The notes under the pieces: model-generated
Seen by the model: only the letters and a program-made list of their open reading frames with translations
What the model was told of the DNA's origin: nothing
The model's database searches: none
Position numbers and translations under genes: made by a program
Origin: a virus
IMG/VR virus record: IMGVR_UViG_3300030518_000006
Location: 1-64,000 of that record
Strand: one strand, 5' to 3'
Length of the DNA: 64,000 nt
Shown here: one piece after another, positions 1 through 53,055 of the stretch
Layout: the number at the start of each line of letters is the position of its first letter
Numbering within the stretch: the stretch's first letter is position 1

Positions 1-295
1 ACGTCAGCACTAGACAGTGCCGTGGATATTCCGGCATCCTCTCCCCGCACGCGATCCATCCCCCTGCCGTCGCCGCTGGCCCAGGTGGGGCGGGGGCGCT
101 GGGCTCCAACTGAGCGATGCGATCCTCCAGCGCTTCATAGTCGTCGTACAGCACATAATTCGGCAGCATGGATTCCGGGCACGGGAAGTCCTCTATGGGC
201 CGCATGCCGTTGCCATCGGGATAGTATTTCTGCGGTGGATCTAGCGCCCCCTTCCCGGCATCGGGTTGGGGCGGCGGGGAGGGGAGGGAGGTCAC
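1..295 (-). CDS. DUF551-like phage protein, C-terminus outside window
   Basis: The frame opens with GTG at 295, in a GTGA overlap with the stop of the gene before it, and stays open to base 1, so 98 residues are visible. The first 75 are proline-rich with a short acidic helix. From W80 the pattern W-I-A-C-G-E-R-M-P-E followed by L-V-L is that of the short DUF551 family common in phages of Proteobacteria, whose function is unknown. It is the last visible gene of the leftward accessory operon. The start choice rests on the overlap only. Confidence 0.65.
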   Translation of the reverse strand, partial: MTSLPSPPPQPDAGKGALDPPQKYYPDGNGMRPIEDFPCPESMLPNYVLYDDYEALEDRIAQLEPSAPAPPGPAATAGGWIACGERMPEYPRHCLVLT

Positions 296-1587: not shown

Positions 1588-1865
1588 TGCTTCTTCCCCG
1601 CGTTGAACGCCTCGATCTCCCGCAGCCTGCCGAGCGTCTCCTCACTCACGATACCCGTCGCCGGCAGGGGCTTGCTATCGATCGAGACCTTGACCGGCTT
1701 CTCGAACGTCACGAAGTAGAGGTCGTGCACCGGCAGCTTGGTTGCCGCGGCGAGTTCACCGAGGATGCGCAGGGCGTCAGCATCGGTGGGGAGCTTGTCG
1801 AGGGTGGCGATGACACGGCCCTTCGATGCCGAACTGACGCCGCAGGTGTGGAGGACGGTGGTCAC
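1584..1865 (-). CDS. hypothetical protein, GTG start
   Basis: About 93 residues if it begins at GTG 1863-1865, which overlaps the stop of the cupin-like gene (GTGA) and fits the spacing style of this operon. A longer frame reaches 1958 but would run deep into that gene. The sequence contains a L-P-T-D-A-D-A-L-R-I-L-G-E-L helix and ends with a helical R-L-R-E-I-E-A-F-N segment. Function unknown. Confidence 0.6.
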   Translation of the reverse strand: MTTVLHTCGVSSASKGRVIATLDKLPTDADALRILGELAAATKLPVHDLYFVTFEKPVKVSIDSKPLPATGIVSEETLGRLREIEAFNAGKKQ

Positions 1866-2464
1866 GCCGGCTTCCCTCCCACCACCGTCGTATGCTGCAC
1901 GAACTGCCGCCACGGCACGAACGGCTTGCCCGGCGGGAAGAACCCCCAGTCGTTGCACCGGACGCCGGTCTGCACCAGGGTCCAGGTGTCGGGGAGGGGG
2001 TTGGTGGCCATGTGGATCTCGGAGTAGCGCTTGGAGATCCGGTCACCCGCGCGTCGGGCGATCGTCGTCCAGAGCGCCTCCGCGGGTCCGATAGCGTGCT
2101 GCTCCCGGGCATGCCCATCGACGTCCCGGTAGAACCCGCTGCTCGCTGGCGGCCCGACCACCTCATCATACCCACCATTGAGGATCGTGGTCACGAAGTC
2201 ATACGGATGATTATGCAGCGCACCATCGTCGTCCCCACGGATGAACTGGTGCAGGACGATGCTCGAAGCCGAGCTGTAGCCATCCTCGTCCTTCTTGGGC
2301 GGGGTCAGCCAGTACCGGGCCAGGTAGGCGTCGGTGTCCTGGCGGCCGGGGATGACGATGTAGTGGCCCGCGGCAACGGCCTCGATCGCGGCGCGCTTGT
2401 ACCACGGTTGCCGGTGCGCGGGGAGATTGACCAGGTCGGAGAGGACTTCGGCGGGGGTAGGCAT
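1862..2464 (-). CDS. cupin-like phage protein
   Basis: A 200-residue protein. The centre reads L-H-Q-F-I-R-G-D-D-D-G-A-L-H-N-H-P-Y-D-F-V-T-T-I-L-N-G-G-Y-D-E, with histidines and acids spaced as in the first metal-binding motif of cupins. The C-terminal W-G-F-F-P-P-G-K-P-F-V-P-W segment is typical of a phage and bacterial cupin-like group. The fold is a six- to eight-stranded barrel that often binds a metal; the substrate cannot be told. It is followed by a GTGA-coupled gene. Confidence 0.65.
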   Translation of the reverse strand: MPTPAEVLSDLVNLPAHRQPWYKRAAIEAVAAGHYIVIPGRQDTDAYLARYWLTPPKKDEDGYSSASSIVLHQFIRGDDDGALHNHPYDFVTTILNGGYDEVVGPPASSGFYRDVDGHAREQHAIGPAEALWTTIARRAGDRISKRYSEIHMATNPLPDTWTLVQTGVRCNDWGFFPPGKPFVPWRQFVQHTTVVGGKPA

Positions 2465-5612: not shown

Positions 5613-8600
5613 ATGCCCGTCGACCCGCTCCAACAGGATCTGCCCGGTGGCCGCGTCGCCATCTTTCATCCCGGGGGCAAGGATTTCCCTGATCGAGTGC
5701 GGCTGGAGGTGCGGGATCAAGCGGGGCCGGTGCGCGTTCTCTCGAAGTTCAATCCAAGCTCGAAGACCGCATCACGCGACCTCGAAAACGAGTTCCTGAT
5801 CAACGAGACCCTGGCGCGCGAGATCCTCGCCACCTATTGGACCTGGGCCCACGATGTCCGCGAGCAGGTCGCGAAAGAGGAAGCGGAAGTCCCCACCAAG
5901 GTCCCGCTCCCTGATTTTCCCACCCCCTACTACGGCCTACGCCAGCGCACCAAGCACCAGCGCAAGGACGAGGCCAACTCCTACGACGCGGTCAACTCCG
6001 CGACCGGATTCCTGGCGGTCCTCAAGCGCACCGGGCTGCCCGACGACACGCTGCTCGAATGGGACAAGGACAAGATCGAGTTCTGCTGTGTGCTCGACCT
6101 CGATTTCCATGACCCCGAGGCACCGGCCAAGCCCACCCCCGATGAGCTCGACGAGCTGGGCCGCGAGTTGTCCCCGGCCCCCGAGGCGTGGTGGCTGAGC
6201 CAGGGCGGCGGCCTGAAGGCCCTTTACACCTCGACCCCCAACCGCCTCTTCACCGCCCAGGAATTCGCGACCGGGGCCGCAGCCAAGCTGCTGACGACAT
6301 TCATCGTGATGAAGTGCCACGGCACGATCGAGATCGACACCAAGACCAGGCACCCCGGCGCCAAGCAGAACGGCAAGCAGTGCGGCCGGGTGAATCTGAC
6401 CATTCCCGACGAGAAGTTCGACGCCCTGGCCCGATTCAGCGCCGCCGAGGCCACGGAGGTCGAGGTCACTGATTTCCTTGAGGACCAGGGGCTGACCATC
6501 GGGGAGATGCTCGGCCACGATATGTGCCTGATTGACCCGAAGCACCCGAGCAAGAGCAACCCGGTCTACGTCGGTAAGGACGGCCTCTTTTGCCACAGCT
6601 GTGCTGGGCGCTTTGGTCGCGGGTTCATGTCGTGGGGTTACGTTCGACGCTACTTCGGGCTCGGCAATGCCGGCGACCGCTCCCTCTCCCCGATCGGCGA
6701 GGCGGTCAAGTTCTTCACCCACGTGTCGCATGTTGACTACCTGTTCAAGCAGCTGCTCCCGGTACTCCCGGAGGCCCTTCGCCGCACGCTCTACCGCACT
6801 CTGCTCAAGAGCACCCATCAGCGCGACCCGCGCATCAGCGTGGCGATGGGGGATTTCTTTTTCGTCCGGGGCCTGGGCACCTGGCTCCACGCTGACACTT
6901 TGCTGCCGGTGGGGCGCCCACTCAACAGCACTGACGTCAGCATCTTGCCGTCCTGCCTACGCTTCAACCCGTACGATGCCGAGAAGCCGCTATCGGTCAG
7001 CTCCGCGGCGGTGGCGTCGCACACGAACAATGGACGCATCCACGGCTGGGTACCGATCCAGCCGTACATCTTCGAGCCGATCTTCTTCAAGCACAACGAG
7101 GCCGCGGCAGTGCAGGACGTGGTGCGCTGCTACCCGCGCGTGCGTACCACCAGGGATCGGGTGACCTATACCAACCCGAAGGAGCGGCTTTCCCTCGAGG
7201 AATGCGAGCGCCGGATCGAGGAGTACTTCCCCGGCGTCAACCTGACCTACATCAAGGCGCTGATCATCGCCGCCGGCTGCGCGGAGAGCGGCAAAGGCGC
7301 AATCCCGATGCTGTGGGCGACTGGCGAGACCGGGTCGGCCAAGACCACTACGATCACGATCGTCCAGGAGATGTACGGGGAATCCTACGCCAACCTGTCC
7401 GAGGTCGAGGACGACGACCGGCTGGTGCAGCTCTTCGGCGAGTCCCTCGAATCCACGCGCCTGATCACCTTCGACGACTTCGCCAAGGAGGCCTCGAGCC
7501 ACAAGCGGTTCCACACCTTTCTGATCCGCCTCAACCGGCACGGGCACAGCTACCACAAGCTCTTCGTCGGCAAGCAGACTCCGCCGGTCAACAGCGCGGT
7601 GATCCTCACCGACTGGAGCATTCCACGCTTCTTCGCTGTCGACCCGCAGTTCGGTCGCCGCGTGCACCTGATCACCCTGGAGAGCCGCATCAAGGTGAGC
7701 TGGGAGAAGATCGGGCACTTCGTCGAGGGATGGTGGAAGAAGACCCCCGAGTTGACCGCGGCGGCAAACGGCCTGCACAGCTGGGTCGTCGATGAGTTTT
7801 TCCCGGCCGAGGACGAGGAAACCTTCTCGAACAAGATGGAGCGCCTGGATATCTTCCCCCTGGAGGATGAGGTCGCGGTGGGCGAGGGCCAGGTGGCGAT
7901 GCAGGAACTCATCGTTCAGCTGGTGAATGCCATCGCGACGACACCGCCCTACGACGAAGTGGCGAGCATGCAGCGACGCATCGGGAAGGGAATCCGGCAC
8001 ATCAACTGGCGCAAGGGGTCCGTCGGCACGCTATGCACCACGCTGGTCGATTCCCTTGGCAAGGTCGACCGGGACGAGGAGAAGATCTACAACGTCGAGA
8101 ACCTCAAGCACGTGCTCGACCCGTTCCAGCTGAAGCTGGCAGCCCTGTTCGACGTCCGCTCCGACGTCAGCAGCATCGCCTTCGACCTGAAGGTCTGGGG
8201 TAGCGCAGCCTTCATCCGCTTGGTCGAGGCCGGGAAGAGCTTCCGGGCGAAGGACCGCCGCATCAACGAGGAACTATTCCGCGACTGGCCGCCGAAGCCG
8301 ACCATCGACGTCCCGGCGGTCGTCACCACCGAACCGATGGCCACGCTTCCCGGCCTACCGGCGGCTCCGCCTATCCCGACCGTGGAGGGGGAGGTCGTGT
8401 CGGACGATGTCGTCATCCTCGACCCGTTCGTCGTCTATCTTGACTTCGAGACCCAGAGCGAGTGCAACATCAAGCAATTCGGCAGCACGGTCTATGCTCA
8501 GCACCCGTCGACCAAGGTGATGTGCGCGGCGCTCTCTGTAGCCGGAACCAGGATATTCTGGACGGAGATACCCTATGACCTCAAGCTCCCGGACGGGGTG

Positions 8601-10490
8601 ATCTACGAGCACGGCCTCGAGTTCCTGCGGAGCATGGTGACCGATCCCTCGGGCTGTATCATTGTCGCGCACAACATGGAGTTCGAGCGGGCAATCTGGA
8701 ACTACACGCTCAAGCTCCCCGAGCCGCAGCAGTGGTACGACACCATGGACGTGACCCTCTCGCGCGGCCTGCCAGCGGGGTGCGACGAGGCAGGGAAATA
8801 CCTCCTGAAGATGGAGAAGGACCATGAGGGAAAGCGGTACATCGCGACGATCTGGGGCCCGAACAAGAAGACCGGAATCGTGCCGGCGTTGACGAGCTAT
8901 CACATCCAGCGGATCATCAACTACAACTTCCGCGATGTTGAAATCAGCCAAGGCATCGCCAGCCAGGAAGGCTATGTGATGACGCCGGACTGGGAGCAGC
9001 GCGTCTGCGACCTGCACCACAAGATCAACTTCTGGGGCATTCGGATCGACAAAGAATTCGCCAAGACCCTACGCTCGTTCGACGATGAGTTCAAAGCAGC
9101 GGCCGGCGAGCACGTGGAAGAGCTGACCGGCGGATCAATTACCCGGAGCGATCTGACCCGGAGCGAGTTCATCATGGAGCAACTGAACGCGAATCTACCG
9201 GCTGATCTTCACCTCGATAATATGCAGGAGAAGACCCTCGAGGAGCTGGTCGAGGAATGCGAGGGGCGAGATGATGTCCCGTGGCAGCTGCAGGAGGTGA
9301 TCAAGTGCCGCATGATCGCGACCCGAGCAGCCCTGGCCAAGGTCGACAAGGCATTGGATTGCATCAGTGCCGACGGCCGGGCCAAGGCCCAGCTGCGGTA
9401 CTGGGGAGCGTCGACCGGCCGCTGGTCCGGCTATCAGGTGCAGCCGCAGAACATGAAGAAGCCCAACGAGGACTTCGACCTGCCGGCTGCGATTGCTGCG
9501 ATCGAACGCCAGGACCGGGACGCGGTCGTCGCTCTCTGCAAGGATAAGAACGGGAAGACACTACCGCCTTACGAGCTGCTCGGCAGTCTGGTCCGCGGCA
9601 TCTTGGTGCCGGAGCCTGGGAGCGTCTTCGTTGTCGGCGACTTCGCTTCGATCGAAGCCCGCGCCCTGCTCTGGCTCGCCGGTGATGAGGAGAATCTCAA
9701 CGAGTACCGGGCGAAGGACCGCGCGGATGAAGCTCACCCTGACGGCAAGGATCCGACGGTCCCTGACACCTACCAATCGCTGGCCGGGTCGATGTTCAAG
9801 GTCAATCCTGTGGAGGTCTCCAAGAAGCAGCGCGGCGGAGGTAAAATCGGCATCTTGGCCTGCGGATTCCAGGGGGGAGCGAATGCCGTGGAGCGCATGG
9901 CGCGTAGCTCCAATGTCGATCTCGAAGGCGCCGGCCTGACCCCGCAGGATGTCGTTGACGGGTATAGGGACAAACACCCGAAGGTGAGGGCCTTCTGGAC
10001 CGACTGTGAGAGTAAGTTCAAATATGTGCTCACCACGTCGAGAACGACGGTCGGCACGGTCGGACGCCTGAAGTTTGAGCGGCTCCCCGACAGGGTACTC
10101 ATCACCCTCCCCTCTGGCAGATCTCTTACCTATATGAACGCTCGTATGGAGGACCGTCGGTACAATTCGTCCTTCGGCGGTCAGGAGATCGCATATGACA
10201 ACGCCGTGCACGGGCATACGCGGCGGCGCACGACCTATGGCGGCAAGATCGTCGAGAATGTGGTGCAGGCTTTCTGCCGCGACCTGCTCGCCGATGTCAT
10301 GCTGCGGCTCGACGCGGCTGGTTGGCCGATCGCCTTTCACGTGCACGACGAAGTTGTCGGCGAGATCGTGATCCCCCGTGCCGATGAATACCTGGAGGCC
10401 ATGCAGCAGATCATGCGCACCCCTCCGGCATGGGCCGAAGGTATGCCGGTATTCTCTATTCCATGCACCATGGCCAGATACGGGAAATAA
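5613..10490 (+). CDS. primase-helicase-exonuclease-DNA polymerase A fusion (single-chain replisome)
   Basis: A 1625-residue protein with four replication modules in order. (1) Residues about 130-290: AEP-type primase with D162-x-D164 (L-D-L-D-F-H-D), S-Q-G-G-G-L-K and a later E-I-D; a Cys/His cluster follows near 307-330. (2) About 540-720: SF3/D5-type helicase with Walker A G571-E-T-G-S-A-K577-T, Walker B T-F-D621-D622 and the motif N-S-A-V-I-L-T-D-W...F-G-R-R. (3) About 935-1100: 3'-5' exonuclease with D944-F-E946-T and H1020-N-M-E-F-E. (4) About 1240-1625: family A polymerase with S-T-G-R-W-S-G, motif A D1343-F-A-S-I-E-A-R, motif B R1407...K1411...C-G-F, and motif C H1578-D1579-E1580. All catalytic residues are present. 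Helicase and polymerase are usually separate genes in phages. Start by GGAAGG site. Confidence 0.92.
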   Translation: MPVDPLQQDLPGGRVAIFHPGGKDFPDRVRLEVRDQAGPVRVLSKFNPSSKTASRDLENEFLINETLAREILATYWTWAHDVREQVAKEEAEVPTKVPLPDFPTPYYGLRQRTKHQRKDEANSYDAVNSATGFLAVLKRTGLPDDTLLEWDKDKIEFCCVLDLDFHDPEAPAKPTPDELDELGRELSPAPEAWWLSQGGGLKALYTSTPNRLFTAQEFATGAAAKLLTTFIVMKCHGTIEIDTKTRHPGAKQNGKQCGRVNLTIPDEKFDALARFSAAEATEVEVTDFLEDQGLTIGEMLGHDMCLIDPKHPSKSNPVYVGKDGLFCHSCAGRFGRGFMSWGYVRRYFGLGNAGDRSLSPIGEAVKFFTHVSHVDYLFKQLLPVLPEALRRTLYRTLLKSTHQRDPRISVAMGDFFFVRGLGTWLHADTLLPVGRPLNSTDVSILPSCLRFNPYDAEKPLSVSSAAVASHTNNGRIHGWVPIQPYIFEPIFFKHNEAAAVQDVVRCYPRVRTTRDRVTYTNPKERLSLEECERRIEEYFPGVNLTYIKALIIAAGCAESGKGAIPMLWATGETGSAKTTTITIVQEMYGESYANLSEVEDDDRLVQLFGESLESTRLITFDDFAKEASSHKRFHTFLIRLNRHGHSYHKLFVGKQTPPVNSAVILTDWSIPRFFAVDPQFGRRVHLITLESRIKVSWEKIGHFVEGWWKKTPELTAAANGLHSWVVDEFFPAEDEETFSNKMERLDIFPLEDEVAVGEGQVAMQELIVQLVNAIATTPPYDEVASMQRRIGKGIRHINWRKGSVGTLCTTLVDSLGKVDRDEEKIYNVENLKHVLDPFQLKLAALFDVRSDVSSIAFDLKVWGSAAFIRLVEAGKSFRAKDRRINEELFRDWPPKPTIDVPAVVTTEPMATLPGLPAAPPIPTVEGEVVSDDVVILDPFVVYLDFETQSECNIKQFGSTVYAQHPSTKVMCAALSVAGTRIFWTEIPYDLKLPDGVIYEHGLEFLRSMVTDPSGCIIVAHNMEFERAIWNYTLKLPEPQQWYDTMDVTLSRGLPAGCDEAGKYLLKMEKDHEGKRYIATIWGPNKKTGIVPALTSYHIQRIINYNFRDVEISQGIASQEGYVMTPDWEQRVCDLHHKINFWGIRIDKEFAKTLRSFDDEFKAAAGEHVEELTGGSITRSDLTRSEFIMEQLNANLPADLHLDNMQEKTLEELVEECEGRDDVPWQLQEVIKCRMIATRAALAKVDKALDCISADGRAKAQLRYWGASTGRWSGYQVQPQNMKKPNEDFDLPAAIAAIERQDRDAVVALCKDKNGKTLPPYELLGSLVRGILVPEPGSVFVVGDFASIEARALLWLAGDEENLNEYRAKDRADEAHPDGKDPTVPDTYQSLAGSMFKVNPVEVSKKQRGGGKIGILACGFQGGANAVERMARSSNVDLEGAGLTPQDVVDGYRDKHPKVRAFWTDCESKFKYVLTTSRTTVGTVGRLKFERLPDRVLITLPSGRSLTYMNARMEDRRYNSSFGGQEIAYDNAVHGHTRRRTTYGGKIVENVVQAFCRDLLADVMLRLDAAGWPIAFHVHDEVVGEIVIPRADEYLEAMQQIMRTPPAWAEGMPVFSIPCTMARYGK

Positions 10491-17765: not shown

Positions 17766-19559
17766 ATGGTCCTCATCGCCTATAAGCACGAAACCCGCAA
17801 CAAAGCCCTGCATCTGCGGGTGGAACAATCGCTGTTCTCGACCGCGATGAAGGACCGCCTGCAGCGTGTCGGGACACCCGCGCGATGGGTGGCTGAAAAA
17901 TCGGCATGGGACTGGCCCATCAGCCCGACGGTCGTCATCAATCTCCACACCATCGCCCAGGAGACCGGGGAGACCGTCGAGTGGCGCGATGGGCTGCTGG
18001 AGTTCGCCGAGGCACACATCAAGCAGAATGATGCGGAGCATCAGGTTCGGCTCGCAATCGAGCGGATCATCCAGGAGAAGCCGCCGCTCGACGCCTATGT
18101 CACCCGCCAGCAGAAGGACGATGGAACGCCGCTGCTCCCGCTCTATCACCAGCAGGTCGCCTTCCATTGGTCCCAGCGGGTGGGCGGCCTTCTGCTGGCC
18201 TGGGACCCTGGAACGGGGAAGGGCAGAGCTGCCACTGATGCTTCCGGCGGCTGGTACCGGCATAATCAGATCCGGCCCATGGAGAGTGTCGTCAAGGACG
18301 GCAAGCCGGCGGTCCAGGGCGGGGTCCTGGTGGTTGCTCCGCCTGACATGCTCAAGACCTGGGAGACCGAGACCAAACTCTGGCAGAGCGCCACCGGGAT
18401 CATCATCCGCGGCGACACGGTGCGCAAGACCCGGTTGGCCGGGACGCCGGCGCATTATCACATCGTGAATTACCAGAATTTGAAGTATGTGCAGCATAAC
18501 GACTATGACGGCCTGATCGTCGATGAAATCGATGCCTGCGCCAATGCGAGTATCCAGACAGGCCACGTTCGGGTACTCGCCCAGCGGGCCCGGAAGCGGC
18601 TCGGTCTCTCGGCCACCCCGATCGCCAATAAGCTCGAATCCATCTTCTACCCGATGCTGATCATCGACGGGGGTAAGAGCCTGGGCGCATCCAAGACCAC
18701 GTTCCTCGAAAAATTCTTCAACGCGGAATCCGTCTTCGGATCGCCCGCACCCAAGTACGAGGCCAAGGAGGGGGCCGAGCAGCTGATCGCCGCGGCCATG
18801 GCGGAGTCGACCTACTTCGTCACCAAGAAGGAAGTGCTGCCCTACCTGCCGGAGAAGACCCACACCCCGCGCCACCTGGAGATGACCCCTGACCAGGCCC
18901 GGTATTACAAGCAGGTGAAGACCGAGGCCGAGATCTTCATCCAGGATGCCACGGTCACCATCGAACAGGCCAGTGCGCGGATGATGAAGCTCCTACAGAT
19001 CTGCCAAGGTTTCGTGCTTGCCGATGGCGCGGCCGGCGGTCGGCATTTCAACGACGTGAAGACCGACGTGCTGATGCGTTTGCTGACCGGTTCCATGTCC
19101 GATCGCAAGGTGATCGTCTGGGCATACTTCACTTACGAGATCGACCGGATCGTCGCCCAGCTCCAGGCGTACGGCATTCCGCACATCCGCATGGATGGTC
19201 AGGTCTCCCAGAAGCAGCGGGACCAGGACAAGGATCGGTGGAATAAGGACAGTGACTTGCGTGTCGCGGTACGCCAGATAGGGATGAGCGCTGGGGTGAC
19301 CATGCATGCGGCAGAGGCCGAGATCACCTGTTACGACATGATCTATATGGGCTTGAGTTACAAGTACCGCGACTGGGTCCAGAGCCAGGACCGCATTCAC
19401 CGCATTGGCCAGACGAATCACTGCTCCTATACCTATCTCCTGACCGAGAACGGTCTTGATCGCCACGTCTACGACGTGTGCCTCGACAAGTACACCACCG
19501 TTGAACGGGTGCATAGCATGGGCAAGAACTTCTTCCTCAATCTCTTGCGTTCCGCCTGA
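17766..19559 (+). CDS. SNF2/DEAD-like superfamily 2 helicase
   Basis: 597 residues. Lobe 1: L-Y-H-Q-Q-V-A-F-H-W (Q-like motif), Walker A D-P-G149-T-G-K152-G, V-V-A-P-P-D-M-L-K-T-W (Ia), D253-E254-I-D (II) and L-G-L-S-A-T-P-I (III). Lobe 2: K-V-I-V-W-A-Y-F near residue 455, then Q-S-Q-D-R-I-H-R-I-G-Q (VI). These are SNF2-family motifs. Phage members of this compact type translocate on DNA and may remodel or repair it. No nuclease domain is fused. Translation starts four bases after the methyltransferase stop. Confidence 0.88.
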   Translation: MVLIAYKHETRNKALHLRVEQSLFSTAMKDRLQRVGTPARWVAEKSAWDWPISPTVVINLHTIAQETGETVEWRDGLLEFAEAHIKQNDAEHQVRLAIERIIQEKPPLDAYVTRQQKDDGTPLLPLYHQQVAFHWSQRVGGLLLAWDPGTGKGRAATDASGGWYRHNQIRPMESVVKDGKPAVQGGVLVVAPPDMLKTWETETKLWQSATGIIIRGDTVRKTRLAGTPAHYHIVNYQNLKYVQHNDYDGLIVDEIDACANASIQTGHVRVLAQRARKRLGLSATPIANKLESIFYPMLIIDGGKSLGASKTTFLEKFFNAESVFGSPAPKYEAKEGAEQLIAAAMAESTYFVTKKEVLPYLPEKTHTPRHLEMTPDQARYYKQVKTEAEIFIQDATVTIEQASARMMKLLQICQGFVLADGAAGGRHFNDVKTDVLMRLLTGSMSDRKVIVWAYFTYEIDRIVAQLQAYGIPHIRMDGQVSQKQRDQDKDRWNKDSDLRVAVRQIGMSAGVTMHAAEAEITCYDMIYMGLSYKYRDWVQSQDRIHRIGQTNHCSYTYLLTENGLDRHVYDVCLDKYTTVERVHSMGKNFFLNLLRSA

Positions 19560-32614: not shown

Positions 32615-33895
32615 TTAGGGTACCTGCAGGGCGGCTTGGATGGTCAGGGCCGCGTTGGTGTTGTTGAAGATGGCTGTAGTGGTCGACGACAGGTGGAGTA
32701 GCCCCACGTCCTGATTTGCCGAACCTACGCCGCCGATGGAAGCGGCTTGATATTGCGACGGGAAGTTCATGACGATGGTCACCAACGACACCGTGGGCGT
32801 ATTTGCGGCGGTGCTTGTCTCCAGGCCCCACGCAAAGTCGAGAGCGGTCTGAGCGGGGAGTGAAGCGACGGTGACACCGGCCAGGGCAGTCGTGATGGTC
32901 GACAGGCTGGTGCCGTTGGTCGCTATAGCGGAGAGCGTCGTAGTGGTCCATGCCGAGCCGTTCCGGTACTTCCACGTCGTACGCCCATCGAATGAGACCA
33001 GGCCGACCAGGGTCGTGCCAGATGGTGTGGTACTTGTAAAGGTGACCGAGGTAATGCTGGCCGGGCTGAAAGCCGCCAAGGAGAAGCTCGACCCAGTGGA
33101 GGTCGTGGCGTAGTACATTGTCCCGGTCGGGTAGGTATAGGTACCAGGCCCCAGGATCTGCACTTGATTCAGCTCTACGTGATACGCACTCCCTCCTACC
33201 GAATTGGTGAAGGCTATCTGGTAGTATCGATAGGGGGTCGAGTTAGAAAACGTGTAGCCGGATGCTGAGGCATTTGTTGGGTTCTGTCCAGTGCGAGAGT
33301 CGAGCGTCGTCCACGGCCCAGTCAGGCCGATGTTCGAGCCGCTCACCGTCCAGGCTGATGGAGCGTTATTAGCTTGCTGGTAAGCGCCCACGAGGTAACC
33401 CGTGGCCACTATTGCTGAGCCAATATCTATGGCCGCAGTACCGGTGTTATATGTCGCAAATTCCATTTGTGAGGTGGTATAGAGGTTGGTCGTGCACCAG
33501 GTCTGGTATGCATTGAATCCCGACTGGATGAATGTTCCAGCCGCCGCGTAGGGGCTCGGTGCGGAGTTGGACGTCATGGACACTGTGGGGTAATAAGTGC
33601 CGGCGCTGAGCGTAGCGAATAGGCTGAGCGCATTCAGATTCGGGGTGACGTTGATCTGCGTCCCCGAAGCAGAATTCTGCTGCACATAATTGCTGGCGCT
33701 GGAGAAGTTATCACTCGTGCTGGTATAGGTCGACGCGGTGACCTGCTTGCTCACTGCCAGGGCGTATTCGTTATTTGTGATCGCGGGATGCGTGACTACT
33801 ACCGAATCGCCAACGGTTCCATAAGCGGACAGTGTGACCGGATTGGTGCTGGTCTGAGTGATCGAGAGTGTTTGTGCAATGGGATTGAAGCTCAT
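32615..33895 (-). CDS. fibre/spike protein 3 with a discoidin-like domain
   Basis: 426 residues rich in Thr, Ser, Asn and Tyr. Residues about 195-250 (G-P-W-T-T-L-D-S-R-T-G, Y-R-Y-Y-Q-I-A-F-T-N-S-V-G-G-S-A-Y-H-V-E-L) match the F5/8-type (discoidin) sugar-binding fold. Residues 285-360 hold T-T-P-S-G-T-T-L-V-G-L-V-S-F-D-G-R-T-T-W-K-Y, usual in phage fibres. It lies one base after its paralogue (TGATATG), so translation may reinitiate. The middle 293 codons are identical to those of the copy upstream, while both ends differ. Role: host sugar binding, inferred. Confidence 0.78.
   Translation of the reverse strand: MSFNPIAQTLSITQTSTNPVTLSAYGTVGDSVVVTHPAITNNEYALAVSKQVTASTYTSTSDNFSSASNYVQQNSASGTQINVTPNLNALSLFATLSAGTYYPTVSMTSNSAPSPYAAAGTFIQSGFNAYQTWCTTNLYTTSQMEFATYNTGTAAIDIGSAIVATGYLVGAYQQANNAPSAWTVSGSNIGLTGPWTTLDSRTGQNPTNASASGYTFSNSTPYRYYQIAFTNSVGGSAYHVELNQVQILGPGTYTYPTGTMYYATTSTGSSFSLAAFSPASITSVTFTSTTPSGTTLVGLVSFDGRTTWKYRNGSAWTTTTLSAIATNGTSLSTITTALAGVTVASLPAQTALDFAWGLETSTAANTPTVSLVTIVMNFPSQYQAASIGGVGSANQDVGLLHLSSTTTAIFNNTNAALTIQAALQVP
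32815..33694 (-). repeat. 880-bp direct repeat, copy 1
   Basis: Bases 32815-33694 appear identical to 34097-34976 (offset 1282) by direct reading and by the identical translations. The match starts and stops sharply inside the two fibre genes, while the flanking parts of the same genes differ strongly. Confidence 0.85.
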
Positions 33896-33896
33896 A

Positions 33897-35177
33897 TCAA
33901 GGCACCTGGAGGGCGGCTTGAATCTGGAGCGCCGCCGGGGTATTGTTGACGAGGACCGTGGTGGTGCTGCTCGCTCGCAACATGCCGATATCCTGGGTCG
34001 CCACTCCCAGTTTGCCCACTGAGGCAGACTGGTACGCGGCAGGAAGTGCGATCACGATGGTGACCAGGAATACCGCTGGTGTAGCTGACGCACTGGTTGT
34101 CTCCAGGCCCCACGCAAAGTCGAGAGCGGTCTGAGCGGGGAGTGAAGCGACGGTGACACCGGCCAGGGCAGTCGTGATGGTCGACAGGCTGGTGCCGTTG
34201 GTCGCTATAGCGGAGAGCGTCGTAGTGGTCCATGCCGAGCCGTTCCGGTACTTCCACGTCGTACGCCCATCGAATGAGACCAGGCCGACCAGGGTCGTGC
34301 CAGATGGTGTGGTACTTGTAAAGGTGACCGAGGTAATGCTGGCCGGGCTGAAAGCCGCCAAGGAGAAGCTCGACCCAGTGGAGGTCGTGGCGTAGTACAT
34401 TGTCCCGGTCGGGTAGGTATAGGTACCAGGCCCCAGGATCTGCACTTGATTCAGCTCTACGTGATACGCACTCCCTCCTACCGAATTGGTGAAGGCTATC
34501 TGGTAGTATCGATAGGGGGTCGAGTTAGAAAACGTGTAGCCGGATGCTGAGGCATTTGTTGGGTTCTGTCCAGTGCGAGAGTCGAGCGTCGTCCACGGCC
34601 CAGTCAGGCCGATGTTCGAGCCGCTCACCGTCCAGGCTGATGGAGCGTTATTAGCTTGCTGGTAAGCGCCCACGAGGTAACCCGTGGCCACTATTGCTGA
34701 GCCAATATCTATGGCCGCAGTACCGGTGTTATATGTCGCAAATTCCATTTGTGAGGTGGTATAGAGGTTGGTCGTGCACCAGGTCTGGTATGCATTGAAT
34801 CCCGACTGGATGAATGTTCCAGCCGCCGCGTAGGGGCTCGGTGCGGAGTTGGACGTCATGGACACTGTGGGGTAATAAGTGCCGGCGCTGAGCGTAGCGA
34901 ATAGGCTGAGCGCATTCAGATTCGGGGTGACGTTGATCTGCGTCCCCGAAGCAGAATTCTGCTGCACATAATTGCTCGCGCTCGAGAAATTGATGCCAGT
35001 ATTGGTATACGACTGCCCTGAGACGTACTTCGATACCGTCAGCGCCAGTTCGTTGTTGGTCACGGCTGGATGAGTGATCGTGACTGAGCTTCCATTGCCG
35101 CCGCCGCCCGCGAGGGTAATCGGATTCGTGCTCGTCTGGGTGACCGACAGTGTTTGCGCAAGGGGGGAGTAGGACAT
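33897..35177 (-). CDS. fibre/spike protein 2 with a discoidin-like domain
   Basis: 426 residues, paralogue of the genes on both sides. Unique parts are residues 1-66 (with a G-G-G-G turn) and about 361-426. The centre, with the discoidin-like G-P-W-T-T-L-D and Y-R-Y-Y-Q motifs, is identical to the downstream gene. Start is ATG 35177, one base after the preceding stop (TAAGATG). The ends could attach to the virion while the centre binds the receptor, or the reverse. Confidence 0.78.
   Translation of the reverse strand: MSYSPLAQTLSVTQTSTNPITLAGGGGNGSSVTITHPAVTNNELALTVSKYVSGQSYTNTGINFSSASNYVQQNSASGTQINVTPNLNALSLFATLSAGTYYPTVSMTSNSAPSPYAAAGTFIQSGFNAYQTWCTTNLYTTSQMEFATYNTGTAAIDIGSAIVATGYLVGAYQQANNAPSAWTVSGSNIGLTGPWTTLDSRTGQNPTNASASGYTFSNSTPYRYYQIAFTNSVGGSAYHVELNQVQILGPGTYTYPTGTMYYATTSTGSSFSLAAFSPASITSVTFTSTTPSGTTLVGLVSFDGRTTWKYRNGSAWTTTTLSAIATNGTSLSTITTALAGVTVASLPAQTALDFAWGLETTSASATPAVFLVTIVIALPAAYQSASVGKLGVATQDIGMLRASSTTTVLVNNTPAALQIQAALQVP
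34097..34976 (-). repeat. 880-bp direct repeat, copy 2
   Basis: Partner of 32815-33694. One border lies in the N-Y-V-Q-Q-N-S-A-S-G-T-Q-I-N segment that all three fibre genes share, a natural crossover point. Confidence 0.85.
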
Positions 35178-35178
35178 C

Positions 35179-36456
35179 TTAGACCACCTGCAGAGCAGCT
35201 TGGATGGTCAGGGCGGCATTCGTATTATTGAAAAGCGCTGTCGTCGTGGCCGTGAGCCGCACCATGCCAATATCCTGGGTGCTCCCCAAACCACCGGTGA
35301 GCGCCGCTTGATACCCGGAAGGGATGCTGATGACAACAGTCACCAGCGAGACCGACGGGGTGTTCGCGGCTGTTGTTGTCTCCAAGCCCCACGCAAAGTC
35401 TAAGCCCGTCTGCGCCGGCAAGGAGTTGATGGTCGCTCCTGCGAGTGCTGAGCTGATGGTTGCCAGGCTGGTCCCCTGAGCAGCTATAGCGGAAAGCGTT
35501 GTGGTGGTCCATGCCGAGCCATTCCAGTATTTCCAGGTCGTCTGATTATCGAATGAGACCAGACCGACCAAGGTCGTGCCGGATGGGGTGGCGCTAGTGA
35601 ACGTAACAGAGGTGATGGTTCCGCCCGCATACCCGGCAAGGCCCACGTTCGACCCGGCTGAGGTCGTCGCATAATACATGGTGCCCGTCGGATAGGTCCA
35701 TGAGCCGGGGCCCAGGATCTGCACCTGATTCAGTGCTGCGACGTATGCTGAGCCGCCCACCGTATTAGTAAAAGCGAATTGATAGTAACGATAAGCAGTG
35801 GTGTTGGAGAAGGTATATGTGGACGCCGATGAACTTGTGGGATTTTGAGCGGTGCGGGTATCGAGAGTTGTCCAAGGCCCAGAAAGGCTCGTGTTAGAGC
35901 CACTAAGCGTCCAGGCAGCCGGGGCATTATTTCCCTGCTGGTAGGCGCCGACGAGATATCCAGTGGACAGGAATGCCACTCCCATATCGATGGCAACTGT
36001 TCCCGTATTATAAGTAGAAAATTCGCACTGCGATGAGGTATAGAGGTTCGTCGTCTGCCACGCGGAGTAGGGTAGAAAAGCGTTGTTAAGATTCGTGCCG
36101 GCTGCCACATAGGGTACCGGGGCTGTGTTTGTGGTCATCGATACGGTGGGGTAGTATGTGGTCCCTCCCGAGGTCGCAAACAGGGTTAGCGCGTTTAGAC
36201 TCGGGAGGGCGTTGATCTGCGTCCCCGAAGCAGAATTCTGCTGTACATAGTTGCTGGCACTTGAAAAATTATCTCCCGTATTCGTATAGGTTGCTCCGGA
36301 CACGCTCTCATAGACAGCCAGCAGGTACTCGTTATTCGCAATGCTCGGATGAGTGATGACCACCGAATCCCCAATAGTCCCCTGCGCCGCCAACGTGACC
36401 GGGTTGGTCGACGTCTGGGTGATCGACAGGGTCTGGGTGGTCGGATTATAGCTCAC
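35179..36456 (-). CDS. fibre/spike protein 1 with a discoidin-like domain, GTG start
   Basis: 425 residues if begun at GTG 36456, which overlaps the spike gene stop (GTGA) and lines up exactly with the starts of the two paralogues (x-S-Y-N-P versus M-S-F-N-P and M-S-Y-S-P). An ATG four codons earlier is less likely. It is diverged over its whole length, including G-P-W-T-T-L-D-T-R and Y-R-Y-Y-Q-F-A-F-T-N. First of three tandem fibre genes. Confidence 0.75.
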   Translation of the reverse strand: MSYNPTTQTLSITQTSTNPVTLAAQGTIGDSVVITHPSIANNEYLLAVYESVSGATYTNTGDNFSSASNYVQQNSASGTQINALPSLNALTLFATSGGTTYYPTVSMTTNTAPVPYVAAGTNLNNAFLPYSAWQTTNLYTSSQCEFSTYNTGTVAIDMGVAFLSTGYLVGAYQQGNNAPAAWTLSGSNTSLSGPWTTLDTRTAQNPTSSSASTYTFSNTTAYRYYQFAFTNTVGGSAYVAALNQVQILGPGSWTYPTGTMYYATTSAGSNVGLAGYAGGTITSVTFTSATPSGTTLVGLVSFDNQTTWKYWNGSAWTTTTLSAIAAQGTSLATISSALAGATINSLPAQTGLDFAWGLETTTAANTPSVSLVTVVISIPSGYQAALTGGLGSTQDIGMVRLTATTTALFNNTNAALTIQAALQVV

Positions 36457-39400
36457 AGGACACGCCACTCCGTGCCATCGTACTGCATGGTGTAGTTCAC
36501 ATTGACGGTCGAGACCACGATCGTGCTGCTGCCGTCGATCGTCCCCGCGCTCGGCGCGATGGTGAGATTATACGTCCCGCTGCCGATCATCTTCACATTC
36601 ACGATCAGGCCGGTCGGCGGGGAGGCCATGAGGGTGATCTGGAAGGCGCTCGAGCTGGTATCTCCCATGATCGTATAATCAGAGGCCAGCATCGTATAGT
36701 TGGAGGTCTTGGTGGAGATCGGGTACGCGACGGCACAGGCAAAAGTCGCATAGAGCGCTTGATTGATCGTGAAGAGCGTCGTGAGGGCATTCGGCGTCGA
36801 GCTGCTCGTGGTCGCCGACGCCACCCGGAAGATGATATTACCGCCGACTCCGGTCCCTGTGCCGATGCCGCCGGCGATCGTGAAGCTGGCGCCAGCGATG
36901 TTGGCTCCTGAGCCGCCTGTGGCGTTATAGATGATTGCCTGCGGGGCAGCATTGGTCTCGCCATTGCCGATGAAGACATTGCCGATGGCGGCGGAATTGC
37001 CGCCTGCGACGAAGCGGTTGCTCGCACCCACGGCGGTCGAGTCCCCAGAGCCATAGCCCAGAAATATGTTGTAGGTGCCGGTGGTGGTCTGGTTTCCCGA
37101 ATCATAACCGATAGCGGTATTGCCAATGCCAGTCATATTGTAGCCTGACCCCAATCCGATCAGGGTGTTATCCCCGCTCGTGGTCAGGGAGAACCCCGCT
37201 TGGAACCCAATACACACATTGCCGGCAGATGACGTCGCCGTGGGTGCGACTTGAGAACCAACGAAGACGTTATCCGCTCCGGACGATGCATGCCCCGAGT
37301 TATATCCGACAATGGTATTGTCACTCGTGCCGACGATACCTGCACCCGCCAGGTTACCCACCAAGGTGTTATGGTTGCCCGTTACGGAGGCGCTGCCCGC
37401 CCCGGAGCCGAAGAATTCATTGGTAGCCACACCGGAGATGTTCGAGTGCAGGCCGGTAGTCGCTGAGAAGGTGAATAGCGTACTGCCAGTGACGGTTGAG
37501 GTCCCGTTCCAATAGGTGACTTCACCTGATGTGCCAGAGCCAGTGACGCCGCCGCCCGCCCCGAAAGGACCAACCGTGGCGCCATTCACGCGCGCATACA
37601 TGCCTGCACTGGTGATCCAGACGTCGCCATTGACGGGCGTAGTCGGGGCCGACCCTTGCCCGATGTTCAAGCCGGCCAAGGTCGTGGTGGAGGCGGGGGT
37701 CAGGACTTCATAGCTGAAGGTGACTGACGGGACGGACGGGGTGGCGGTCATCCAGGTCGTATAGGTACCCGACACCGATGCCCAGAAGTGAAAACTACCA
37801 TCGTCGGCCCCGCCATTAGCAGGGGTACCGAAACCGAAGGTGTTGCCCGCCGTGTTCGACCACCGCTGGAAATTCTGGTTATAGACGTCGGAGGACTGCC
37901 ATGCCCATGCGTAGCCTGCCAGGGGGGAAATGACGGTGAAGAATGAGTCGAGCGCGCTGCCGTTTCCCCAGCTCAAGGCGAGGGGGAAGACGATCGTGTT
38001 CGCGATCGTGGCTGATGCGACCGCGAGAGGGGCGCCAGACGGGTAGCTGCCTGAGCAGCTGCCGCTGATGTTGCCGCCACCTCCGGAGAGTGACGCATAC
38101 GCGCCACCATTCACCGATGCGTAGAAACCCTGGAGCGTATCATCGTAATAAATGGTCCCGCTGTTGCTCGGCGACAGGGCAGGTGCGCTCGTTGTCGCGA
38201 TGCCGGTCCAGGTGGTCCCGCCATCGCCCCCCACCGTCCAACGCGTGGTCAAGGTATTGGGGGTGCTGCTCGACGTCCCGACCGGTGCGGTCTTGATGAT
38301 CACCGCACCGCCCGCTCCCGTGCCCGTGCCAATGCCGCCGGCGATGGTATAGCTGGCGCCGGCAACGTTGGCGCCCGAGCCACCCGTCGCATTGTAGACC
38401 ACCGCTTGCGGACTCGCGGCGGTCTCGCCATTGCCGATGAATACGGTTGATATGGGGGCGCTCAACGAACCGGCCACAAGGCGATTGCTCGCTCCTGCTG
38501 CGGTGCTGTCACCTGAGAGCGCGCCGAGGAAGATGTTGTAGGATCCGGTCGTGTTCGACTCGCCGGCATCGTACCCCATTCCAACCAGGTATTGGCCCGT
38601 GGTTGTGGCCGTCAGTGCGCCGGCGCCGAAAGCGGCATTGTAGGAACCCGAGGAGCCGCCACCGGTCGCTCCCTCCAGTGCACTCAGGCCTACGGCCACG
38701 TTCTGCGACCCGGCGTTGTAGTAGCCCGCCGAAGATCCGATGAAGGTGTTCGGGCCCCCGGCATAGGCACCCCCCGCATGGTAACCGACGAGCGTGCTGC
38801 CGCTCGTACCCGTGATGGCGGCACCCGCGCTCACGCCGATCATCACATTGCTTCCGCCCGAGGTCAGGGCCGCCCCAGGACCATTGCCCAGCAGCGTGTT
38901 GTTCGCCCCGGTCATGGTGGTGTTGCCGGCATTGGCGCCCCATGTCTCCGTGGCCGTGGTGTTGGGTTGGTTGCAGGTCACCCCTGCACCGGTCGTATAC
39001 CGGAGCGTGCTGCTGCCGGTAACGGTCTCAGTGCCATTCCAATAGACCAGCTCACCGGAAGTTCCCGATCCGGTGATGACACTGGATGGGAGATCAGCGG
39101 CCACCAGAGCTCGGAAGGTGGGCGCTGCAGCGGCTCCGGTCGTCGGGCCAGCCCATACGTAGTTGGCCGTCTGGGTCGCCAGGGTACCAGTCAAGGTACC
39201 GGACGCAGTGACGGGCGACCCGGTGACGGTGAATATGGCGGGGAGGGCAAGACCAACACTGGTCACCCCGCCCCCTCCCGTACCAAAAGGCCCGACCGTC
39301 CCGCCATTCACTTGGGCATACATGCCTGCGCTGGTGATCCAGATGTCACCGTTGTTGGGTGATGTCGGAGTCGACCCTTGCCCGATGTTCAAGCCGGCCG

Positions 39401-39668
39401 CGGTGGTCGTCGATGCCGGGGTGCCGACGGGCACTTGGGCCGTGATCACCGACGCCCCGACGCTGAGCACCTCCGTCCCATTGACCACCACGCCGATCTT
39501 GGATGACGTGGTCGCCTGGGTCGCATAGAAGCCGATGCGATTCGATGCGGTGGCAGCGGTGACATCCCCGTTCCCGTCCGCGATTGGGAAGGCGAAGGCC
39601 AGGGCCGCGGCACTGCCGAGGATCTGGAGACGAGCGCCGAGCTTCAGGAGGAGGGATTGGGCGGCCAT
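36453..39668 (-). CDS. 1071-residue trimeric-autotransporter-like spike protein
   Basis: Begins M-A-A-Q-S-L-L-L-K-L-G-A-R with a hydrophobic stretch (15-28) that may attach it. Two large related halves follow, each with L-N-I-G-Q-G-S-x-P-T, a G-D-x-W-I-T-S-A-G-M-Y-A-x-V-N-G unit and strings of YadA-head-like repeats (N-T-L-L-G-N-G, N-V-M-I-G-V-S-A-G, N-T-F-I-G-S-S-A-G). The phage-fibre signature S-V-G-L-A-L-P-A-I-F-T-V-T-G-S-P is near 137. The C-terminus (T-I-D-G-S-S, Y-D-G-T-E-W-R-V-L) is a typical fibre end. It would form a long trimeric stalk. Confidence 0.82.
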   Translation of the reverse strand: MAAQSLLLKLGARLQILGSAAALAFAFPIADGNGDVTAATASNRIGFYATQATTSSKIGVVVNGTEVLSVGASVITAQVPVGTPASTTTAAGLNIGQGSTPTSPNNGDIWITSAGMYAQVNGGTVGPFGTGGGGVTSVGLALPAIFTVTGSPVTASGTLTGTLATQTANYVWAGPTTGAAAAPTFRALVAADLPSSVITGSGTSGELVYWNGTETVTGSSTLRYTTGAGVTCNQPNTTATETWGANAGNTTMTGANNTLLGNGPGAALTSGGSNVMIGVSAGAAITGTSGSTLVGYHAGGAYAGGPNTFIGSSAGYYNAGSQNVAVGLSALEGATGGGSSGSYNAAFGAGALTATTTGQYLVGMGYDAGESNTTGSYNIFLGALSGDSTAAGASNRLVAGSLSAPISTVFIGNGETAASPQAVVYNATGGSGANVAGASYTIAGGIGTGTGAGGAVIIKTAPVGTSSSTPNTLTTRWTVGGDGGTTWTGIATTSAPALSPSNSGTIYYDDTLQGFYASVNGGAYASLSGGGGNISGSCSGSYPSGAPLAVASATIANTIVFPLALSWGNGSALDSFFTVISPLAGYAWAWQSSDVYNQNFQRWSNTAGNTFGFGTPANGGADDGSFHFWASVSGTYTTWMTATPSVPSVTFSYEVLTPASTTTLAGLNIGQGSAPTTPVNGDVWITSAGMYARVNGATVGPFGAGGGVTGSGTSGEVTYWNGTSTVTGSTLFTFSATTGLHSNISGVATNEFFGSGAGSASVTGNHNTLVGNLAGAGIVGTSDNTIVGYNSGHASSGADNVFVGSQVAPTATSSAGNVCIGFQAGFSLTTSGDNTLIGLGSGYNMTGIGNTAIGYDSGNQTTTGTYNIFLGYGSGDSTAVGASNRFVAGGNSAAIGNVFIGNGETNAAPQAIIYNATGGSGANIAGASFTIAGGIGTGTGVGGNIIFRVASATTSSSTPNALTTLFTINQALYATFACAVAYPISTKTSNYTMLASDYTIMGDTSSSAFQITLMASPPTGLIVNVKMIGSGTYNLTIAPSAGTIDGSSTIVVSTVNVNYTMQYDGTEWRVL

Positions 39669-48752: not shown

Positions 48753-49390
48753 GCGCCAAGCTCACCATCGCCGCTCCACGCCAACCCGTCGCCCAGCTCC
48801 CCATCTGGGACTGGGTTGGCGACGTGCAGTTCTATTCGATGGCCCAGACCCGCAACGCCACAGGAGAATTCTGTGAAGAAGCAACCCGGCATCTCCTCGG
48901 CGGCGAGCGGCTCTCCACCCAAGGAACGGTGGACATCTGCCCGGACATCCGATTGGACGAGCATCGTTATCTTGAGGTTAAATCGGTGGGGGATCGGCGA
49001 TGCGCCCTCCTCTACGAGCATATCCTCGACCGAACAATCCGGTTCGTCCGCCGTAACCGGGTCAAGGTCTTCTATGTCTTCTGGATCCACACCGTTCCCG
49101 CCGCCAAGTGTCCCAGTCTATTCGATTTGCGACGGGCGATGGCCGCATCTATTGATCGTGTCATCATCGTCCCCTTCACCCAGGTGCACGAGGCGATCAA
49201 GGGCATCACGCCCCGGAAGATGAACTACCGGGTCCGGGAGCACAGCGGGGAGCAGATCGCTATGCTCGGCTGGTCGATTCCGGTCAAGCAGCTGAAGGCC
49301 TGGAGCGTCGGACAGCCGCGAATGGCGTTTGACACCGAGGTCTTCGGGTATTCGATGGGTGGGTATCCGGTCTATGGAGACGTGCGATGA
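48749..49390 (+). CDS. PD-(D/E)xK nuclease
   Basis: 213 residues from TTG 48749 (TTGA overlap). G-E-F-C-E-E-A-T-R-H-L-L-G-G-E-R, then V-D62-I-C-P-D66-I-R-L-D-E-H-R-Y-L-E76-V-K78-S-V-G form the core. V-K-V-F-Y-V-F-W-I-H near 105 matches a following core strand. Such phage enzymes cut recombination intermediates or invading DNA. The final G-G-Y-P-V-Y-G-D-V-R is nearly repeated at the end of the methylase-deaminase. Confidence 0.75.
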   Translation: MSAKLTIAAPRQPVAQLPIWDWVGDVQFYSMAQTRNATGEFCEEATRHLLGGERLSTQGTVDICPDIRLDEHRYLEVKSVGDRRCALLYEHILDRTIRFVRRNRVKVFYVFWIHTVPAAKCPSLFDLRRAMAASIDRVIIVPFTQVHEAIKGITPRKMNYRVREHSGEQIAMLGWSIPVKQLKAWSVGQPRMAFDTEVFGYSMGGYPVYGDVR

Positions 49391-49527
49391 CCCTTCCCCC
49401 GCCCGTCATCTCGCTTGAGTCGCTGCTCTTCTGGAACCTGGCCGCCGCGGTCGGCATCACACTGCTCGTCCGGTTCTTGGTGCTCTGGCTCGCCCGTACC
49501 CTATTTGGAGAGGGCCATGACCACTGA
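49387..49527 (+). CDS. 46-residue membrane protein, copy 1
   Basis: ATGA-coupled to the nuclease. M-T-L-P-P-P-V-I-S-L-E-S leads into one long hydrophobic segment (L-L-F-W-N-L-A-A-A-V-G-I-T-L-L-V-R-F-L-V) ending G-E-G-H-D-H. The protein is identical to that at 52778-52918. Size and place would suit a holin subunit. Confidence 0.6.
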   Translation: MTLPPPVISLESLLFWNLAAAVGITLLVRFLVLWLARTLFGEGHDH

Positions 49528-49663
49528 GCAGCTATACTACGCGACCGGCATCGCTTCCAATGTTCTGACCATCCTGACCTGCGCCTACACCATCTGGACG
49601 CTCCGCAGCTGGGTGAGCAGCACGGTGAAGAAGGCGCTCGACGACGTGAAGAAAGTGATCTGA
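49517..49663 (+). CDS. 48-residue membrane protein, copy 1
   Basis: ATG 49517 lies inside the end of the previous small gene in another frame. M-T-T-E-Q-L-Y-Y-A-T-G-I-A-S-N-V-L-T-I-L is one short helix, followed by the basic amphipathic end V-K-K-A-L-D-D-V-K-K. It differs from the copy at 52908 at only two residues. May work with its neighbour as a two-part membrane complex. Confidence 0.6.
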   Translation: MTTEQLYYATGIASNVLTILTCAYTIWTLRSWVSSTVKKALDDVKKVI

Positions 49664-49664
49664 C

Positions 49665-50434: not shown

Positions 50435-50785
50435 ATGCCCCTCTACCACCTCCTCGCTCAGCCCCTGCCCAAGCTCACTCCCGACGGGAAGCGCGTCTGG
50501 GTCTGCATCTGCGGCCAGAAGGTCGCCCTGCCGAACGTCCAGCCGGCGAGCCAGGTGATCCAGACCTCGAACAACCGGGTGGAGGTCATGGAGTGCCCGG
50601 CCTGCTATGCTGGTACCGAGGAAAAGGGCGAAGAAGCCCCTCCGATGACCGAGCAGGGGGATATCAAACCGACCTTCGACCAAGATCTGGGAGATGCCAC
50701 GGACGACCAATCTGCGCCGGATGAGACGGGTGAAGATGGGGAGGTTCTGGAGGAGGAGAAGGTCGACTTCCCTGACGCGCGATGA
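50435..50785 (+). CDS. zinc-ribbon protein with acidic tail, copy 1
   Basis: 116 residues. V-W-V-C-I-C-G near 22 and V-M-E-C-P-A-C-Y near 52 give a zinc ribbon. The last 55 residues are strongly acidic (D-E-T-G-E-D-G-E-V-L-E-E-E-K). Paralogue of 53056-53406. ATGA-coupled to the methylase. Confidence 0.65.
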   Translation: MPLYHLLAQPLPKLTPDGKRVWVCICGQKVALPNVQPASQVIQTSNNRVEVMECPACYAGTEEKGEEAPPMTEQGDIKPTFDQDLGDATDDQSAPDETGEDGEVLEEEKVDFPDAR

Positions 50786-53054: not shown

Positions 53055-53055
53055 C

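What the first reader, a model, noticed from the sequence alone, without database searches (positions are those of the whole stretch)
5613..10490. A replication fork on one polypeptide: primase, helicase, exonuclease and polymerase A fused
The sequence directly shows complete catalytic motifs for an AEP-type primase (D162/D164), an SF3-type helicase (Walker A 571-578, Walker B D621-D622), a 3'-5' exonuclease (D944/E946, H1020) and a family A polymerase (D1343, K1411, H1578-D1579-E1580) in one frame without a stop. Established knowledge: phages usually keep these apart or fuse primase with helicase only. The Plasmodium apicoplast enzyme PREX joins the same four activities, but with a Twinkle-type primase-helicase, so this would be an independent version. 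An extra P-loop-like A-E-S-G-K-G-A just before Walker A is odd.
Basis: partly seen in the sequence, partly recalled or inferred. Interest (0 to 1): 0.88.

Follow-up and report, generated by a model that had tools for sequence, protein, structure and literature searches.

The report
One-protein viral replisome with PolA
A virus from bog metagenomes, probably of planctomycete bacteria, carries a single 1,625-residue gene that joins a primer-making domain, a DNA-unwinding domain and a proofreading DNA polymerase; a second, distant virus carries the same fusion, so it is real, although similar all-in-one replication proteins built from other parts are already known.

Summary
The ORF is real: 5613-10490 (+), 1625 aa, no internal stop. 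An assembly in a Planctomycetota MAG has the same protein at 100%. A divergent IMG/VR virus (L215) encodes the same fusion end to end (1654 aa, 54% identical). Residues 941-1625 are a 3'-5' exonuclease/family A polymerase (phrog_17, E 7e-77). Residues 1-929 match no Pfam or PHROG model and no phage record. Four planctomycete relatives plus L215 show invariant D162, D164, E240, R246, P248 (AEP-like), a previously missed HxxC...CxxC zinc site, K577/T580/D621 and R682-R683. Profile comparison links the primase part to PF09250 Prim-Pol (prob 88%) and the ATPase to DUF5906/SF3-like helicases (prob 94%); no column shuffle came close. In one planctomycete genome the two modules are separate, overlapping genes in the same order, so the protein looks like a fusion of adjacent genes. 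The 'extra P-loop' is chance, H1020 is not catalytic, and AEP motif-II His is Lys202 here. Precedents: phage 1706 GP55 (AEP, helicase, PolB), pyrovirus 3173 polyprotein (DUF927, exo, PolA), PREX. Verdict: a new variant of a known kind. Activity, and whether it stays in one piece, are untested; structure prediction failed for lack of an alignment.

The parts
5613..10490 (+). Fused replicase ORF, 1625 aa, including the stop codon
5913..6512 (+). AEP-like primase core (residues 101-300): motif I D162/D164, motif II G198-G200 with Lys202 in place of His, third acid E240, R246-x-P248
   Evidence: invariants; hhalign prob 87.7, E 3.4e-6 against the PF09250 set, 0 of 60 column shuffles reach it
6516..6602 (+). 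Zinc-binding site H302-x2-C305 ... C327-x2-C330
   Evidence: all four residues invariant in six relatives
7173..7772 (+). AAA+/SF3-like helicase core (residues 521-720): Walker A G571-T580, Walker B D621-D622, RR 682-683
   Evidence: hhalign prob 94.5, E 8e-8 against the DUF5906 set, 0 of 60 shuffles
8283..8432 (+). Pro/Ala-rich linker between helicase and exonuclease (residues 891-940), the least conserved stretch (28% identity to L215). Holds an in-frame GTG at 8397 behind a GGAGG-rich stretch
8433..9002 (+). 3'-5' exonuclease (residues 941-1130): D944/E946, N1021/E1025, Y1104/D1108
9003..10487 (+). Family A DNA polymerase (residues 1131-1625): D1343, R1407/K1411, L1415 (E. coli 762 position), H1578-D1579-E1580
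   Evidence: Pfam PF00476 E 6.7e-10; phrog_17 E 7e-77
17766..19559 (+). Separate SNF2-type helicase gene (phrog_62), the usual companion of this PolA group

Best explanation
The ORF encodes a multifunctional viral replicase made by fusion of two adjacent operon genes: an AEP-type primase with a zinc site and an SF3/D5-like AAA+ helicase, and a proofreading family A polymerase. It most likely works as a self-contained fork machine. The helicase part assembles into a ring and unwinds DNA, the zinc site and AEP domain lay primers on the exposed strand, and the tethered exo-PolA extends them. Shown: the intact fusion in two viruses, conserved catalytic residues, homology of the parts, and separate versions elsewhere. 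Inferred: each activity, ring formation, primer hand-over in cis, and that the chain stays uncut.
For: Open frame and coding signal across the junction. 100% identical protein in a MAG assembly. Same 1654-aa fusion, 54% identical, in a virus with no other detectably shared gene within 14.2 kb. All domains from the AEP on are conserved at 49-66% while the linker falls to 28%. PolA and exonuclease: phrog_17 E 7e-77, Pfam PF00476, invariant motifs. AEP: PF09250 profile prob 87.7, E 3e-6, and a weak direct Pfam hit to PF09250 in one relative, E 0.0024. SF3-like: DUF5906 profile prob 94.5, E 8e-8. Unfused arrangement: in genome G018 a primase-helicase ORF and a PolA ORF overlap in the same order, twice. 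The analogous phage 1706 GP55 has all four activities in vitro (PMC12205980).
Against: No structure: AlphaFold2 without an alignment gave pLDDT 33-34. The AEP profile match covers motifs I and II only. Motif-II His is Lys202 in this protein, so priming could be weak or lost, although L215 keeps His. The SF3 motif-C Asn is not evident (T666-D667-W668 instead). No biochemistry. Other helicases in the genome (SNF2 at 17766; UvrD at 82723 of the virus record) could do the unwinding.
Confidence: 0.75

Rival explanations
1. The gene is translated as one chain but works as separate proteins: it is cut in the Pro-rich linker (as proposed for pyrovirus and reported for PREX), or exo-PolA is also made alone from an internal GTG start in the linker.
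For: The linker is the least conserved part (28% identity, 11 gaps). An in-frame GTG follows a GGAGG-rich stretch at 8397 in the window, and a GTG behind AGGAG lies at about the same place in L215. G018 makes the two modules from separate overlapping genes. PREX is reported to be proteolytically matured (reference cited in PMC8113025; PMC7689252).
Against: Glu codons (GAG) give Shine-Dalgarno look-alikes by chance (12 GGAGG in the ORF). No protease site is known. Both viruses keep the frame open across the junction, which separate products would not require.
Confidence: 0.25
2. The AEP part has lost priming (Lys202 in place of the motif-II His), and the N-terminus serves as an origin-binding or loading module for the helicase while another primase, host DnaG for example, makes primers.
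For: Lys202 here, Lys in G018, Arg in G150. In known AEPs this His contacts the nucleotide (general knowledge of the family).
Against: D162, D164 and E240 are invariant in all six relatives, and His is kept in L215 and G179, which points to retained catalysis in the family.
Confidence: 0.2
3. The fusion is an assembly artefact or a single-virus accident.
For: Few relatives; IMG/VR contigs are metagenomic. The MAG may come from overlapping sequence data, so it is not fully independent.
Against: The MAG assembly agrees at 99.95%. L215, from another metagenome and 54% identical, has the same fusion. Codon-position signal is unbroken.
Confidence: 0.02

Closest known systems
GP55 of lactococcal phage 1706 (four-in-one replicase, PMC12205980)
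   Same: One phage polypeptide (1317 aa) with an AEP-type primase, a helicase with Walker A/B and arginine finger, a 3'-5' exonuclease and a DNA polymerase; shown in vitro to copy DNA de novo.
   Different: Polymerase of family B, not A; domain order helicase, primase, alpha-helical domain, polymerase. No sequence relation tested here.
Pyrovirus OS3173 (TOSV) 1606-aa PolA polyprotein, 3173 Pol (PMC7689252, PMC10423840)
   Same: Virus-encoded primase/helicase region fused to 3'-5' exonuclease and family A polymerase; fused in some members, a separate ORF in others, as seen here.
   Different: N-terminal region is DUF927/COG5519; none found here by Pfam in any relative, and the profile comparison was negative. 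Its PolA belongs to the Aquificae/apicoplast group; the window's is phrog_17-like.
Apicoplast PREX (Plasmodium, Toxoplasma)
   Same: Primase, helicase, exonuclease and PolA on one gene product.
   Different: Primase and helicase of the Twinkle/T7 gp4 type (established knowledge); here AEP-like and SF3-like. Eukaryotic, proteolytically processed.
PrimPol-PV1 / D5-type AEP-helicase proteins of mobile elements (PMC5862659) and NrS-1 PrimPol
   Same: AEP, Zn-binding or helical linker and D5/SF3-type helicase in one chain on mobile elements.
   Different: No fused exonuclease or PolA in the architectures I read; the window's N-terminus is too far to be placed in a named family.
phrog_17 family A polymerases of temperate siphophages (e.g. 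Streptococcus Javan phages)
   Same: Exo and polymerase domain, about 30% identity, Leu at the 762 position, SNF2 helicase companion.
   Different: Stand-alone genes, with primase as a separate gene downstream of polA; here the primase-helicase is upstream and fused.

Membership tests
phrog_17-type family A DNA polymerase with 3'-5' exonuclease | Profile match and intact exo (DxE, N..E, Y..D) and pol (motif A D, motif B R/K, motif C HDE) residues | tested here: met
   E 7e-77; all invariant
AEP / PF09250 Prim-Pol | Profile similarity | tested here: inconclusive
   No direct Pfam hit for the window protein; hhalign of the family prob 87.7, 0 of 60 shuffles, over motifs I and II only; one relative hits PF09250 at E 0.0024
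AEP / PF09250 Prim-Pol | Motif I DxD and third acidic residue | tested here: met
   D162, D164, E240 invariant in 6 of 6
AEP / PF09250 Prim-Pol | Motif II His (sxH) | tested here: not met
   Lys202 in the window; His in L215 and G179, Lys in G018, Arg in G150
AEP / PF09250 Prim-Pol | AEP fold | tested here: inconclusive
   AlphaFold2 without alignment pLDDT 33
SF3/D5-like helicase (PF19263 DUF5906 group) | Profile similarity across Walker A, Walker B and RR | tested here: met
   hhalign prob 94.5, 158 columns, 0 of 60 shuffles; no direct Pfam hit
SF3/D5-like helicase (PF19263 DUF5906 group) | Motif C (sensor 1) Asn | tested here: not met
   T666-D667-W668 in both fused proteins, variable in relatives
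Pyrovirus 3173 PolA polyprotein | DUF927 N-terminal domain | tested here: not met
   No Pfam DUF927 hit in six members; hhalign prob 0.1, 9 of 60 shuffles as good (the DUF927 reference set was small and partly fragmentary)
Pyrovirus 3173 PolA polyprotein | PolA of the Aquificae/apicoplast clade | not tested
   No 3173 sequence in the tree; closest matches are phrog_17 phages
GP55 four-in-one replicase | C-terminal family B polymerase | tested here: not met
   The polymerase is family A
PREX | Twinkle/T7 gp4-type primase-helicase | tested here: not met
   N-terminus matches AEP and SF3-like profiles and no Toprim or DnaB Pfam model

The most novel reading that the evidence does not exclude
An independently evolved complete replisome on one chain in viruses probably infecting planctomycetes: an SF3-like ring of six fused subunits would bring six primases and six proofreading family A polymerases to one fork and start DNA synthesis on bare single-stranded DNA without any other protein. 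It would be the first such enzyme built from AEP, SF3 and PolA.
Probability: 0.4. Interest if true: 0.8.

Novelty: new variant of a known kind. Interest (0 to 1): 0.62.

Why it matters
It would show that 'all four fork activities on one chain' arose more than once with unrelated parts (PolB in GP55, DUF927-PolA in pyroviruses, AEP-SF3-PolA here), and here both the fused and the separate-gene stages can be seen. It offers two divergent enzymes, 1625 and 1654 aa, as candidates for primer-free DNA amplification. It also gives a family of AEP-helicases with no Pfam or PHROG model, which needs one.

Tried and rejected
AlphaFold2 on residues 93-369 and 471-801 without an alignment gave pLDDT 33-34, so no fold search was run. 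Viral scans with exact Walker A, with HVHDEVVGE, with A2 and with A3 gave no relatives of the N-terminal part. Phage and plasmid tblastn with the N-terminal part of the window protein or its relatives: no match. The extra P-loop was rejected (Lys lost in L215). Origin by assembly error was rejected. The polymerase tree leaves the window's place unresolved because of a long branch; an AU test did not finish. DUF927 homology found no support.

Full report
Observation. ORF 5613-10490 (+) encodes 1625 aa without a stop. The window is bases 1-64000 of a 96,773-base IMG/VR virus record, 63% GC. Codon-position GC is unbroken from start to stop. A scan of genomes found the same protein, 100% identical, on a 29-kb contig of a Planctomycetota MAG from a bog (PLEW01000003.1); that contig is colinear with window 3660-32837 at 99.95%. 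The assemblies differ slightly but may share sequence data, so this alone is not full independence.

A second fused protein. A motif scan of IMG/VR found contig IMGVR_UViG_3300005719_000223 (L215). It encodes a 1654-aa ORF aligning over the whole length with 54% identity. By domain the identity is 50% (AEP), 56% (zinc), 57% (AAA), 58% (exonuclease) and 56-66% (polymerase), but 28% in the linker at residues 891-940 and 33% in the first 100 residues. No other gene within 14.2 kb of L215 matches the window virus by blastp at E 1e-3. The fusion is therefore conserved and not an artefact. Among the other IMG/VR polymerases examined none had a comparable N-terminal extension, and no phage record covers 80% of the query.

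The C-terminal half. Residues 939-1613 match phrog_17 (E 7e-77), and residues 1186-1603 match Pfam DNA_pol_A. Against five annotated phage and plasmid homologues, exonuclease residues D944, E946, N1021, E1025, Y1104, D1108 and polymerase residues D1343, R1407, K1411, H1578, D1579, E1580 are invariant. The position equivalent to E. coli 762 is Leu1415 (own alignment of motif B). Leu762 PolAs are reported mainly in temperate phages, and one group lies next to SNF2-like and UvrD-like helicases (PMC6302109). This virus has an SNF2-type gene at 17766-19559, a UvrD-type helicase at 82723-84297 and an integrase/invertase-like gene at 71943-72917 of the record, which fits.

The N-terminal half. Residues 1-929 have no match in phages or plasmids and no significant Pfam or PHROG hit. 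A search of 392 planctomycete genomes found four relatives in three genomes, at 20-23% identity in the alignment. With L215, six proteins share D162, D164, G200, E240, R246, P248; H302, C305, C327, C330; G571, K577, T580; D621; R682, R683. Profile-profile comparison, done locally against sets of planctomycete proteins carrying PF09250 or PF19263, gives prob 87.7 (E 3.4e-6) for the primase part and prob 94.5 (E 8e-8) for the ATPase part. None of 60 column-shuffled controls reached either score (an earlier run without L215 gave 0 of 100). DUF927 gave nothing beyond shuffles, with the caveat of a small, fragmentary reference set. One relative hits PF09250 in Pfam directly at E 0.0024. These are single-comparison statistics and the PF09250 alignment spans motifs I and II only, so the AEP fold is likely, not shown. 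Two AlphaFold2 runs without alignment failed.

Where it came from. In planctomycete genome G018, two loci hold an 801-aa primase-helicase ORF followed by an overlapping ORF in another frame that starts ...IDFETYY and is a phrog_17-like exo-PolA. Loss of that overlap and stop would give the window's arrangement directly. In Streptococcus and Corynebacterium phages with related polymerases the primase gene lies downstream of polA, so the G018 order is the one that matches the fusion. Relatives in G150 and G179 have no polymerase found nearby. The direction of change (fusion rather than fission) is inference; the polymerase tree does not resolve it. A planctomycete host is suggested by the MAG and the relatives, but only planctomycete genomes were sampled for relatives and the contig could be misbinned.

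Mechanism. Most likely the SF3-like part forms a ring that unwinds DNA, the zinc site and AEP domain prime, and the tethered exo-PolA extends; phage 1706 GP55, with analogous modules and PolB, does this in vitro (PMC12205980). Reservations: motif-II His is Lys202 here (His in L215); SF3 motif-C Asn is not seen; the linker may be cut or hold an internal start (GTG at 8397 behind GGAGG).

What is known. All-in-one replicases exist: GP55 (PolB), pyrovirus OS3173 1606-aa polyprotein (DUF927 and PolA, fused or split between relatives; PMC7689252), PREX. AEPs fused to D5-type helicases on mobile elements are common (PMC5862659). I found no report of AEP, SF3-like helicase, exonuclease and PolA on one chain, in a library limited to open-licence papers. 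The verdict is a new variant of a known kind, well supported as a sequence feature and untested as an enzyme.

Noticed in passing
window 50782-52617 (+): 611-aa ORF in which a cytidine/dCMP deaminase domain (461-562) sits between the body of a C5-cytosine DNA methyltransferase (5-190, about 405-456) and its C-terminal piece (568-596): an apparent methylase-deaminase fusion or insertion.
   Followed up: partly
window 49387-49680 and 52778-53071: 294-base direct repeat, 95% identical, flanking the methylase-deaminase gene; two further repeat pairs (80% and 71%) lie nearby. Looks like a local duplication around an inserted gene.
   Followed up: partly
window 32615-36456 (-): Three tandem ORFs of about 426 aa with near-identical starts (MSYNPTTQTLSITQT and similar), next to a 1071-aa tail-spike-like protein at 36453-39668.
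   Followed up: no
whole 96.8-kb record: No terminase or capsid was recognised among the larger genes scanned with PHROGs and Pfam, although an integrase-like gene and a GP88-domain gene (56743-58536) are present; the virus is very divergent.
   Followed up: partly
window 244-271 and the last 28 bases of the record: A 28-base sequence occurs near the start and exactly at the end of the record, possibly an assembly overlap of a circular or permuted genome.
   Followed up: no
L100 4593-8910 and L101 3195-7222: Genome G018 (Planctomycetota) holds at least two related elements with overlapping primase-helicase and PolA genes, plus a primase fragment at a contig end.
   Followed up: partly
window 1862-2464 (-): Cysteine-dioxygenase-like gene (phrog_4786, E 6e-26), an unusual metabolic gene in a virus.
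   Followed up: no
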